Shown piece after piece: positions 1 to 2,718 of a stretch of DNA of 64,000 nucleotides (its first letter is position 1; every line of letters starts with the position of its first letter). Made by a program: the position numbers and the translations under genes. The stretch comes from an uncultured Cytophagales bacterium (GTDB taxonomy: Bacteria > Bacteroidota > Bacteroidia > Cytophagales > Thermonemataceae), in contig CALLAC010000009.1 of assembly GCA_938002655.1 (NCBI GenBank), forward strand, positions 1 to 64,000, read 5' to 3'. The notes beneath the pieces were generated by a model. The model was given only the letters and a program-made list of their open reading frames with translations, searched no databases and was not told the DNA's origin.

Positions 1-134
1 AACTCGGCGTTCTCCGCTTGTAACGCAGCATTCTCTTTCCGAAGTCTATTTATCTCCTCTTCCTGAGCCGATAACTTGACTAGAACTTCTAAAAGCATTC
101 GCTGTAATTCCTCTATCGTGTTGGGTAGTTTCAT
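1..134 (-). CDS. N-terminal fragment of a coiled-coil protein, possibly IS66-type transposase
   Basis: A reading frame starts with ATG at 134 (minus strand) and runs off the left edge after about 44 codons. It begins MKLPNTIEELQRML and continues as a leucine/glutamate-rich heptad stretch (EEEINRLRKENAALQAEN). Short zipper-like N-termini of this kind are typical of IS66-family transposases, which read LxxEnaaLraE before their zinc-finger part. No catalytic part lies in the window, so the assignment rests on style only. Another coiled-coil protein is equally possible. Confidence 0.4.
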   Translation of the reverse strand, partial: MKLPNTIEELQRMLLEVLVKLSAQEEEINRLRKENAALQAENAE

Positions 135-366: not shown

Positions 367-403
367 AAAAATCTATGAGTTTTTCAAAACCTCATAGATT
401 TTT
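367..403. terminator. bidirectional terminator hairpin
   Basis: A perfect 13-bp inverted repeat (AAAAATCTATGAG at 367-379, its complement at 391-403) carries A/T runs on both sides. It lies downstream of the small plus-strand ORF and contains the stop codon (392-394) of the minus-strand GIDE gene, so it can end transcription from both sides. Its core resembles the hairpins at 34680 and 60892. Confidence 0.75.
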
Positions 404-1213
404 ATACGTAATTATCAAAATAACTCCAATTATCAGCAGAGCAATCGCTCCTATCAAAGACTTCCTTGCCGAGCTTTCTACATCTTTTACAAGTTCTTCT
501 TCCGACTTTACCGAAACAATAAAATTGTGATTGTTATCGCTAGGTTTAGAAATAGCAAGTTCTCCATTTTTATCATTAGCTTCCCCATATACATACAGGC
601 GTGTATCAACAGGAATAGATTCTTCTATCAGTCGATAGCCAAGCGTTCTTGAACCATAAGTATCGGTATTGCTCAGAAAATTCACCAGCCGCATACCCCA
701 ACTCGTATTACGATGCTGATTGAGATAGCCCTGCGATAGTTCTTTTTCAAATCTATCCACGGTAGTAGTTGTGTGTTTTTCTGCCAAAGCAGGATTGACC
801 GCTATGGTTTTACCACTGCCGTCATCAATGTAAAAAGGAACATTTTGCTCATTGCACGAAATAGTTTCCGATTTGCGGTGAGTAACCCAACGAACACTGC
901 CGTTACTATCTCGTACTTGCTCTTGCACCTCATATTCGCGAATTACGTAGGCTTTGTAATAGACGACAGGCTTTCTGCTATGGTCGGCAAGGAGTGGATT
1001 ATTGCATTTAGCAATACCCTTGACTTCCACAATTTCTGTATAATGTCCTTTCCCTACGGTGCCTACAATATCCTCGTAATTTTCCCAAATATCTTTGGCA
1101 GTGGTAGTCTGCTGATAGCGAATATTCAACGACTTATCCAATTGCGATTTACGATAGAACCAAAGCCCAACTGCAATGATTATACAAACAATGCCTGCAA
1201 TAAGAAATACCAC
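392..1213 (-). CDS. GIDE/BAM-domain membrane protein (MUL1-like, no RING)
   Basis: The 273-residue protein has an N-terminal transmembrane helix (about 2-19), a soluble central region, and a second helix near the C-terminus (about 250-269). Between them lies the GIDE fold shared with the mitochondrial E3 ligase MUL1/MAPL. Visible hallmarks are a GxV...EVKGIAKC start, PVVYYKAYVIREYE, RKSETISCNEQNVPFYIDDGSG, and a late strand RLYVYGEA. Bacterial members are often labelled E3 ubiquitin ligase family, but no RING finger follows the second helix here, so ligase activity is not supported. Translation appears to start at GTG. The gene lies downstream of pspA and ybjN on the same strand, separated from ybjN by a hairpin. 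A role in membrane stress is inferred from this context. Confidence 0.75.
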   Translation of the reverse strand: MVFLIAGIVCIIIAVGLWFYRKSQLDKSLNIRYQQTTTAKDIWENYEDIVGTVGKGHYTEIVEVKGIAKCNNPLLADHSRKPVVYYKAYVIREYEVQEQVRDSNGSVRWVTHRKSETISCNEQNVPFYIDDGSGKTIAVNPALAEKHTTTTVDRFEKELSQGYLNQHRNTSWGMRLVNFLSNTDTYGSRTLGYRLIEESIPVDTRLYVYGEANDKNGELAISKPSDNNHNFIVSVKSEEELVKDVESSARKSLIGAIALLIIGVILIITYKNL

Positions 1214-1250
1214 TTGAATAGTAGAATTGTAGAGATGAAAAATATTTTGG

Positions 1251-1279
1251 AAAAACCTTCAAGCAGTATAACTTGAAGG
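1251..1279 (-). terminator. terminator/attenuator between ybjN-like and GIDE genes
   Basis: An 8-bp perfect stem (CCTTCAAG at 1256-1263 with CTTGAAGG at 1272-1279) is followed, on the minus strand, by a run of five T. It sits just after the YbjN-like stop codon and before the GIDE gene. It could separate the two transcripts or only reduce read-through. Confidence 0.6.
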
Positions 1280-1301
1280 GTTTGAATAAGAGCAAAAATG
1301 T

Positions 1302-1754
1302 TTAAGCAGTTTGTGGTTTTTGCTTAAACATTTCATCGTAGCTATCGGCTACGGTAGCCACGGTTTGTACAGCGGCAACAAACTCGTTGAGGTCTAAATT
1401 GGCACCTGCCAAAGCATAGCTATACACTATGGCTCTATCGAAGGTCAGACCAAAACTACCAAAGTGCATACTGGCATTGAGGCGAAGTAATTCTTCTGCC
1501 ATATCAGGCGTAAGATTTACGTCTTCGGCAAGATACGAATATACTTCTACCAGTACGTCTTCGCTATGCCAACCAATGACACGAATGTTCACGTTCACCG
1601 TACCAAAAGAAAAACTATATGTGTTTTCTATTTTAACTACTTCATAATCGTGAAATAGCTCTTGAATGTATTTTTCTACTTTGGCTTGCGTAGAGGCAAT
1701 CAGCTCTTCATTAACACCTTCTTTAATTACTTTGAATTTAGGCATAATCGGCAT
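1302..1754 (-). CDS. YbjN / type III secretion chaperone-like protein
   Basis: The 150-residue cytoplasmic protein matches the YbjN/CesT-like peptide-binding chaperone fold. It has an N-terminal helix (about 12-33), strands around NTYSFSFGTVNVNIRVIGW, then VLVEVYSYLAEDVNLTPDMAEELLRLNA, which is the characteristic strand-helix step, and a final helix rich in Ala/Val. There is no signal peptide. A second possible start lies three codons inside. It is 10 bp downstream of pspA and surely shares its transcript. YbjN-fold proteins bind client peptides in secretion systems; here the partner may be PspA or a membrane protein, which is inference from context. Confidence 0.75.
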   Translation of the reverse strand: MPIMPKFKVIKEGVNEELIASTQAKVEKYIQELFHDYEVVKIENTYSFSFGTVNVNIRVIGWHSEDVLVEVYSYLAEDVNLTPDMAEELLRLNASMHFGSFGLTFDRAIVYSYALAGANLDLNEFVAAVQTVATVADSYDEMFKQKPQTA

Positions 1755-1764
1755 AATTTAGGGG

Positions 1765-2439
1765 TTAATTATTTGTTTTACCTAATTTAGCTTTAAGTTT
1801 GGTAAGTTCGTCTTCTACCGCTGCATTTTTCTCCAAGGCTTTGAATTCGTCATCAAGGATGGTAGTACCCTCTGCAAGTTGTGTAAAGGCTTGTGCTTCG
1901 GCTTCTTCTTTAAGGATTTTCTCCTCAAATTTGGAGAATTTGGAAGAGATAGAAGAGCTATCAAAGGTGCCAATATTTTTAGCAATTTCTTTCTGAGCTT
2001 TTGCCGCTTGGCTACGAGCAATGAGCATAGATTCTTTCATTCTTGCCTCATCCAGTTTGGCTTTGAGTTGCTCTACTTGCGTTTTTAAGGTTGCGGCAGT
2101 TTGAGCGGCTTGCTCGTACATTTGTTTGTAGGTTGCGGCTTGCTGGTCTGCTTCTACTTTTTTGGCTAATGCCTTACGAGCCAAATCTTGGTTATCTGCT
2201 TGCAATGCCGCCATAGCTTTGTTTTCCCATTCTTTTGACATAGCCACAAACTTTTCATAATCTCTTTGCAACTTTTTTTCTTGTGCCATAGCCTGTGCCA
2301 AACCCGAGGTCGCTTTGGTTACAGCTTCTTGCATGTCTATAACCATTTGCTTAATCATTTTGACAGGGTCTTCTGCCTTGTCAAGCAAATCATTGATGTT
2401 GGCTCTTATGATATCGCCGATTCTACTGAAAATTCCCAT
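1765..2439 (-). CDS. pspA: PspA/IM30 family membrane-stress protein
   Basis: A 224-residue, almost wholly helical and highly charged protein. It opens with the amphipathic helix of the family (MGIFSRIGDIIRANINDLLD) followed by the signature EDPVKMIKQMVIDMQEAV (about 23-40), then long coiled coils rich in Ala, Gln and Lys. PspA is an ESCRT-III relative that forms rods on the inner membrane, stabilises damaged bilayers and limits proton leakage. No pspF, pspB or pspC is nearby, as is usual outside proteobacteria; the linked genes encode a YbjN-like and a GIDE-domain protein instead. It is the first gene of the cluster, with about 280 bp of non-coding DNA upstream in which I find no clean promoter. 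Confidence 0.93.
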   Translation of the reverse strand: MGIFSRIGDIIRANINDLLDKAEDPVKMIKQMVIDMQEAVTKATSGLAQAMAQEKKLQRDYEKFVAMSKEWENKAMAALQADNQDLARKALAKKVEADQQAATYKQMYEQAAQTAATLKTQVEQLKAKLDEARMKESMLIARSQAAKAQKEIAKNIGTFDSSSISSKFSKFEEKILKEEAEAQAFTQLAEGTTILDDEFKALEKNAAVEDELTKLKAKLGKTNN

Positions 2440-2718
2440 AAATTATGTGTTTTTAAGTGATACAAGTTTTACTTGCGAAATATTAGGCATTTTTTAGATA
2501 GAAATCAAATTTTTATAGTACTTTTTTGCAAAAACTTTATGAAAATAATGCATACATTGATGAGAACTTATTTTGAAGTAAGGTTATGCTTTGGAACATT
2601 TGTAAGGTTTATTTCGCTTTCAAGGAAAGTATTTTTTTGAGAAGTTGGTATGAAAAGTGTAATTCGCAAGTCGGAAACTTACAAGTTGTGTGCAGAAATT
2701 ATATAAATACAACTTTTC

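What the first reader, a model, noticed from the sequence alone, without database searches (positions are those of the whole stretch)
392..2439. PspA - YbjN chaperone-like - GIDE/BAM membrane protein cluster
A PspA (ESCRT-III relative), a YbjN/T3SS-chaperone-like protein 10 bp after it, and, beyond a hairpin, a two-helix protein with the GIDE fold of mitochondrial MUL1 but no RING. No classical psp partners are present. The grouping of a membrane-remodelling filament, a peptide-binding chaperone fold and a membrane-anchored GIDE protein suggests an envelope-stress module of a kind that, as far as I know, is not functionally described. Order and strand are seen; the shared function is inference.
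Basis: partly seen in the sequence, partly recalled or inferred. Interest (0 to 1): 0.6.

Follow-up and report, generated by a model that had tools for sequence, protein, structure and literature searches.

The report
PspA–chaperone–GIDE membrane-stress gene trio
Three neighbouring genes in a Raineya bacterium (a membrane-repair filament protein, a chaperone-like partner, and a membrane-anchored cousin of a human mitochondrial protein) stay together across a whole group of related bacteria, so they very probably work together, and the third partner was not reported for this system in the two published surveys read here.

Summary
On the minus strand of a Raineya contig (Cytophagales) lie pspA (1765-2439), a TY-chaperone/YbjN-CesT-fold gene 10 bp later (1302-1754), and, beyond a terminator-like hairpin, a two-TM GIDE/BAM gene without RING (392-1213). 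In 390 genomes of the order, 22 carry GIDE over cut-off; 21 of these carry this class of chaperone, adjacent in all 21 (20 complete triads, one cut by a contig end). Only 1 of 365 genomes without that chaperone has GIDE. Flanking genes differ between most lineages; in Thermonema the chaperone and GIDE genes overlap by 4 bp. The pspA-CesT/Tir dyad itself is published (Ravi 2024; Pseudomonas BacA-BacB). GIDE as its third partner is not mentioned in the two Psp surveys searched: a new variant of a known kind. The GIDE model (pLDDT 95) is a two-TM protein with an OB-fold-like soluble part (weak scores); charge bias puts it in the cytoplasm, facing PspA. Best model: the chaperone holds or regulates PspA, and GIDE is a low-copy membrane anchor, analogous to YdjH or the YqiJ-like proteins of other pspA operons. 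Linkage is shown; mechanism is inferred.

The parts
1765..2439 (-). pspA (PspA/IM30/Vipp1 family, 224 aa)
   Evidence: PF04012 E 1.2e-55; PDB matches to Vipp1/PspA down to 6e-40 over residues 1-219
1302..1754 (-). TY-chaperone (YbjN / CesT-Tir / T3SS class-I chaperone fold), 150 aa, 10 bp after pspA
   Evidence: PF22551 1.3e-15; AlphaFold2 pLDDT 88; Foldseek best hits 2plg (YbjN-like), 3kxy (ExsC-ExsE), 8q8o (BacA); VIA-align Z 14.3, 13.5, 12.5
392..1213 (-). GIDE/BAM-domain protein, 273 aa, GTG start, TM helices at both ends, soluble OB-fold-like middle, no RING
   Evidence: PF12483 2.2e-31; AlphaFold2 pLDDT 94.9; charge-bias topology; OB-fold-type matches to residues 34-235, Z about 6-8
1256..1279 (-). 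terminator-like hairpin (9 pairs + T5) between chaperone and GIDE genes
   Evidence: a hairpin plus T-run at the same position with different sequence in the other three genus members
2440..2560 (-). pspA upstream region: conserved TTTG-N20-TAATATTTCG element and an imperfect inverted repeat just upstream (decayed in the window, clean in two relatives)
   Evidence: alignment of three genus members; the promoter reading is inference from the known Bacteroidota consensus

Best explanation
This is a conserved three-gene PspA module: an ESCRT-III-like membrane-repair filament (PspA), a dedicated small chaperone (TY-chaperone) and a membrane anchor (GIDE). Proposed mechanism: the chaperone, made from the same message, binds a segment of newly made or free PspA, keeping it soluble and/or restraining it, as class-I T3SS chaperones hold their clients and as BacA restrains the bac operon. 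GIDE sits in the inner membrane with its OB-fold-like domain in the cytoplasm and serves as the low-copy docking site that recruits or nucleates PspA at damaged or fluidised membrane, the job done by YdjG/YdjH in Bacillus and PspB/PspC in E. coli. The terminator-like hairpin before GIDE in some genomes would give much filament and chaperone and little anchor. Shown: gene order, families, folds (as models), linkage, hairpins, charge bias. Inferred: who binds whom, direction of regulation, stress role.
For: Linkage: 20 complete triads plus one contig-truncated one among 22 GIDE-positive genomes in a 390-genome sample of the order; Fisher table 21/4 vs 1/364, p about 1e-29, which treats related genomes as independent. 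Also one triad-like locus in an Ignavibacteriales MAG. Flanking 4 kb shows no shared proteins except between close relatives. Chaperone and GIDE genes overlap by 4 bp in two Thermonema-genus genomes. Phylum-wide, 41 of 45 chaperone hits lie within 351 bp of pspA on the same strand, and 40 of 43 strong PspA genes (E<1e-30) have the chaperone next door. The chaperone model matches T3SS chaperones and BacA. GIDE loop flanks are rich in K/R (189 and 155 vs 29 and 25 in the tails; loop exceeds tails in 54 of 56). Precedents: CesT/Tir-PspA dyads (PMC11237479); BacA loss raises BacB 7.2-fold, and a BacA-BacB interaction is quoted as unpublished (PMC10948618); YdjH binds PspA in two-hybrid tests and YdjG/YdjH are needed for its membrane foci (PMC8581546).
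Against: No interaction data and no complex prediction (the tool folds single chains). Most bacterial GIDE genes found (Spirochaetes, Actinomycetes, Crocinitomicaceae) are not near pspA, so GIDE has other uses; the one in Thermochlorobacteriaceae G187 belongs to the triad clade by tree yet stands apart from pspA. Four order genomes have this chaperone class without GIDE (G011, G015, G348, G365), so GIDE is dispensable. The triad clade is mostly one inheritance, so the 21 genomes are not 21 independent events. Tail K/R counts are low partly because the tails are only a few residues long.
Confidence: 0.5

Rival explanations
1. The chaperone is mainly a regulator of the operon (BacA/YbjN-like negative regulator, perhaps post-transcriptional), not a PspA-holding chaperone; GIDE is an effector of separate mechanism in the same regulon.
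For: BacA loss raises the other Bac proteins 6- to 13-fold (PMC10948618); ExsC and CesT, both fold matches, also act in regulation.
Against: Immediate adjacency to pspA in two gene orders whose chaperones form two separate clades points to a direct PspA partner; in many genomes nothing else is shared.
Confidence: 0.22
2. GIDE is a separate membrane scaffold (lipid-domain or NfeD/flotillin-like role) that shares stress regulation with the dyad but does not touch PspA.
For: Terminator-like hairpin between dyad and GIDE in all nine genomes with a long gap; GIDE stands alone or beside LemA in other lineages.
Against: Chaperone and GIDE genes are 27 bp or less apart, or overlap, in 11 of 20 full triads; near-exclusive co-occurrence within the order.
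Confidence: 0.22
3. Chance or neutral neighbourhood inherited from a recent ancestor.
For: The triad is mostly one clade.
Against: Flanks are reshuffled between most lineages while the three genes stay in order, and an Ignavibacteriales genome has the same three families in the same order.
Confidence: 0.03

Closest known systems
CesT/Tir-PspA dyad operons (Ravi et al. 2024, PMC11237479), including YjfI-YjfJ of E. coli and BacA-BacB of Pseudomonas
   Same: A PspA paired with an adjacent TY-chaperone-fold protein; membrane proteins encoded in the same operon
   Different: Here pspA comes first and its chaperone forms its own clade; the membrane partner is GIDE, not flotillin/YqiJ-type, spermidine-synthase-type or ATP-grasp polyamine genes; GIDE is not mentioned in the main text of the two Psp surveys searched
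B. subtilis pspA-ydjGHI
   Same: PspA with dedicated membrane proteins that localise it (PMC8581546)
   Different: YdjG/YdjH are unrelated families (NTF2-like and TPM per Ravi et al.); no TY-chaperone
MUL1/MAPL (GIDE/BAM family)
   Same: BAM/GIDE domain between two transmembrane helices
   Different: No RING, so no E3 ligase; bacterial domain predicted cytoplasmic; MAPL's domain lies in the intermembrane space (PMC4457424)
NfeD/YuaF/YqiJ-like proteins in TY-chaperone-pspA-flotillin operons of other Bacteroidota
   Same: Small membrane protein next to a PspA-chaperone pair; OB-fold soluble domain in YuaF (from general knowledge) and an OB-like one in the GIDE model
   Different: Different TM number and position, no sequence similarity; the OB-fold of GIDE rests on middling structural matches only

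Membership tests
PspA/IM30/Vipp1 | Full-length PspA_IM30 domain | tested here: met
   PF04012 positions 1-219 of 220, E 1.2e-55; Vipp1/PspA PDB matches
PspA/IM30/Vipp1 | Forms rods/rings and remodels membranes | not testable with these tools
   needs purified protein
TY-chaperone superfamily (YbjN/CesT/Tir) | alpha-beta(3-4)-alpha-beta-beta-alpha chaperone fold | tested here: met
   model pLDDT 88 with that order of elements; matches to many T3SS chaperones, YbjN and BacA; over cut-off for three related Pfam models
TY-chaperone superfamily (YbjN/CesT/Tir) | Binds a client peptide | not testable with these tools
   client unknown; PspA is the guess
CesT/Tir-PspA dyad operon | Adjacent same-strand pspA and CesT/Tir-superfamily gene | tested here: met
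   10 bp apart; conserved phylum-wide
CesT/Tir-PspA dyad operon | Flotillin/YqiJ, AAA+ or polyamine genes in the same operon (the published larger groups) | tested here: inconclusive
   no recurring neighbour beside the triads; the Band_7 gene of this genome is on another contig; AAA+ and polyamine families were not searched by name, and the window's downstream side is cut by the contig end
Classical psp operon (pspABC/F) | PspC beside pspA | tested here: not met
   the single PspC hit is on contig C3; pspA is on C9
Classical psp operon (pspABC/F) | PspB and PspF present | not tested
   no search made
GIDE/BAM family | GIDE domain between two TM helices | tested here: met
   PF12483 in 56 of 56 aligned members; TM segments and model
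GIDE/BAM E3 ligases (MUL1/MAPL) | C-terminal RING finger | tested here: not met
   protein ends right after TM2; no RING hit
OB-fold proteins | beta1-3, helix, beta4-5 barrel | tested here: inconclusive
   strand order fits; LysRS, RPA, MCM and Teb1 OB domains recur at Z about 6-8, but Foldseek alone has no significant hit

The most novel reading that the evidence does not exclude
The ancestral job of the GIDE/BAM domain is to dock ESCRT-III-like PspA filaments on membranes. If so, this bacterial trio would give a testable origin for the unexplained conserved function of mitochondrial MAPL/MUL1 in membrane dynamics and vesicle formation.
Probability: 0.12. Interest if true: 0.8.

Novelty: new variant of a known kind. 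Interest (0 to 1): 0.5.

Why it matters
It gives bacterial GIDE/BAM proteins, for which no function was found in the papers read here, a concrete partner hypothesis, and it gives the PspA-chaperone dyad a candidate membrane receptor. Thermonema and Raineya carry a compact three-gene version that could be rebuilt in laboratory E. coli and tested with PspA localisation assays. It also offers a route to the open question about the conserved role of MAPL's BAM domain (PMC4457424).

Tried and rejected
(1) Chance neighbourhood: rejected by order-wide linkage and reshuffled flanks. (2) E3-ligase activity implied by the Pfam name 'E3 Ubiquitin ligase': rejected, no RING. (3) GIDE matches in PDB by sequence: none meaningful. 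(4) Foldseek on the whole GIDE model: no significant match; the OB-fold idea rests on the second aligner, two weak PF01336 hits and strand order. (5) Attempt to show that the YqiJ-like protein of the other operon class is OB-fold: only a weak YuaF (2k14) hit, E 0.1, and weak YqiJ_N hits; left as a literature statement. (6) GIDE scan beyond the order: apart from one Ignavibacteriales MAG and the Cytophagales-type loci, no pspA within about 5 kb of GIDE in Spirochaetes, Actinomycetes or others. (8) Literature searches for GIDE with PspA, MUL1 with OB-fold, and PF12483 found no prior report of this trio.

Full report
What is there. The window is the first 64 kb of a contig of a 2.64-Mb genome. 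The nearest named relative is Raineya orbicola (82-84% identity of the GIDE protein), so this is a Raineya, order Cytophagales. Reading the minus strand, pspA (2439-1765) is followed after 10 bp by a 150-aa gene (1754-1302) and after 88 bp by a 273-aa gene (1213-392). Pfam gives PspA_IM30 (1.2e-55), TY-Chap1/CesT_Tir_1/YbjN (1.3e-15 / 3.6e-7 / 6.2e-7) and GIDE (2.2e-31), all over their cut-offs.

The PspA is ordinary. It matches cyanobacterial Vipp1 and other PspA structures over residues 1-219 and starts with the usual amphipathic stretch (MGIFSRIGDIIRANINDLLDKAEDP).

The chaperone-like protein has a true TY-chaperone fold. The AlphaFold2 model (pLDDT 88) matches YbjN-like 2plg, ExsC of the ExsC-ExsE complex, DR1245, and BacA (8q8o), the partner of a PspA-like protein in Pseudomonas. 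A profile search of the PDB by sequence alone also finds 2plg (E 3.5e-4).

The GIDE protein has a TM helix at each end, with tails of only a few residues, and no RING. The model is very confident (pLDDT 94.9). Its middle part (residues 34-235) recurs among OB-folds (LysRS, RPA, MCM, Teb1) at Z about 6-8. Those scores are in the range where unrelated folds also occur, and Foldseek by itself found nothing significant, so an OB-fold is likely but not proven. Lysine and arginine crowd the loop next to both TM helices (189 and 155 residues over 56 proteins against 29 and 25 in the tails). By the positive-inside rule this puts the domain in the cytoplasm, where PspA is.

Linkage. In 59 relatives, 11 have GIDE and 10 of these have pspA-chaperone-GIDE in that order on one strand. 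In a 390-genome sample of the order, 22 genomes have GIDE over cut-off. Class-defining chaperone hits (E below 1e-44, plus one split by contig ends) occur in 25 genomes. The overlap is 21 genomes, and in each the genes are adjacent; 20 are complete triads. One GIDE genome (G023) lacks this chaperone class; four chaperone genomes lack GIDE (G011, G015, G348, G365). Fisher's test gives p about 1e-29, to be read with the caution that related genomes are not independent. Flanking proteins are shared only between close relatives, so the trio has stayed together while its surroundings changed. An Ignavibacteriales MAG has pspA, chaperone, a 475-aa gene and GIDE in a row.

Evolution. In a tree of 56 GIDE proteins, 14 of 15 trio members plus one from Thermochlorobacteriaceae form a supported clade (99/99); the Ignavibacteriales one is placed nearby but unresolved. 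GIDE proteins of Spirochaetes, Actinomycetes, Crocinitomicaceae and others are not within about 5 kb of pspA; in one Bacteroidota genome a divergent GIDE sits beside LemA. So GIDE probably joined the dyad mainly once, in one lineage, and perhaps a second time.

The dyad is broader and known. In 296 genomes across the phylum, 41 of 45 chaperone hits are within 351 bp of pspA on the same strand, 23 as pspA-chaperone and 18 as chaperone-pspA. The two orders correspond to two fully separated chaperone clades (100/100). The chaperone-first class often continues into a YqiJ-like gene and a further membrane protein, matching the flotillin-type operons that Ravi et al. reported (PMC11237479). Forty of 43 strong PspA genes have the chaperone next door.

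Expression layout. The gap between chaperone and GIDE is bimodal: 27 bp or less (down to a 4-bp overlap) in 11 of the 20 full order-level triads, and 78-171 bp in the other nine, each of those nine with a stable hairpin; in the four Raineya genomes the hairpin is followed by a run of T at the same place with different sequence. This looks like an attenuator that keeps GIDE low relative to PspA. Upstream of pspA, three Raineya genomes share TTTG-N20-TAATATTTCG, resembling the known Bacteroidota promoter, with an inverted repeat just before it that is clean in two genomes and decayed in the window.

Mechanism. Shown: families, order, folds by model, linkage, hairpins, charge bias. Inferred: GIDE anchors or nucleates PspA at the membrane; the chaperone holds PspA or restrains the operon. 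Supporting precedents are YdjG/YdjH for PspA foci in B. subtilis (PMC8581546), BacA loss raising BacB 7.2-fold (PMC10948618), and the strong up-regulation of yjfIJKL by a promoter mutation in heat-evolved E. coli (PMC12492005). Probability estimates: real functional module 0.95; GIDE directly serves PspA 0.5; chaperone directly binds PspA 0.5.

Novelty. Two surveys of Psp contexts (PMC11237479, PMC9239133) do not mention GIDE in their main text; supplementary tables could not be read, so a listing there cannot be excluded. The trio is therefore a new variant of a known kind.

Noticed in passing
window 3-134 (-): The contig starts inside an open reading frame of at least 44 codons (MKLPNTIEELQRMLLEVLVKLSAQEEEINRLRKENAALQ...) that from memory resembles the start of an IS66-type transposase; a repeat there would explain the contig break.
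   Followed up: no
L026 2347-2904, also L016 and L033: In other families of the order pspA is followed by a TerD-domain gene instead of the chaperone (PF02342 1.8e-65 for L026).
   Followed up: partly
L139 1009-1485: In Thermochlorobacteriaceae G187 a small DnaJ-domain gene precedes the chaperone-pspA pair.
   Followed up: no
L054 4971-6624: A divergent GIDE gene lies directly beside a LemA-family gene (PF04011 8.8e-49).
   Followed up: partly
L069 3531-4958: The Ignavibacteriales trio holds an extra 475-aa gene with a weak AbiEi-like winged-helix hit between chaperone and GIDE; a possible dedicated regulator.
   Followed up: partly
L039 4636-5073: In one genus member (G002) a gene that looks like a small heat-shock protein sits directly upstream of pspA.
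   Followed up: no
L072, L074, L081, L117: In Spirochaetales GIDE is repeatedly preceded by a gene of the rhomboid family (PF01694 3e-26 in L072) and an unknown gene of about 225-236 aa.
   Followed up: partly
window 2484-2512: Imperfect inverted repeat next to the presumed pspA promoter; the clean versions in two relatives differ by matched changes in both arms.
   Followed up: partly
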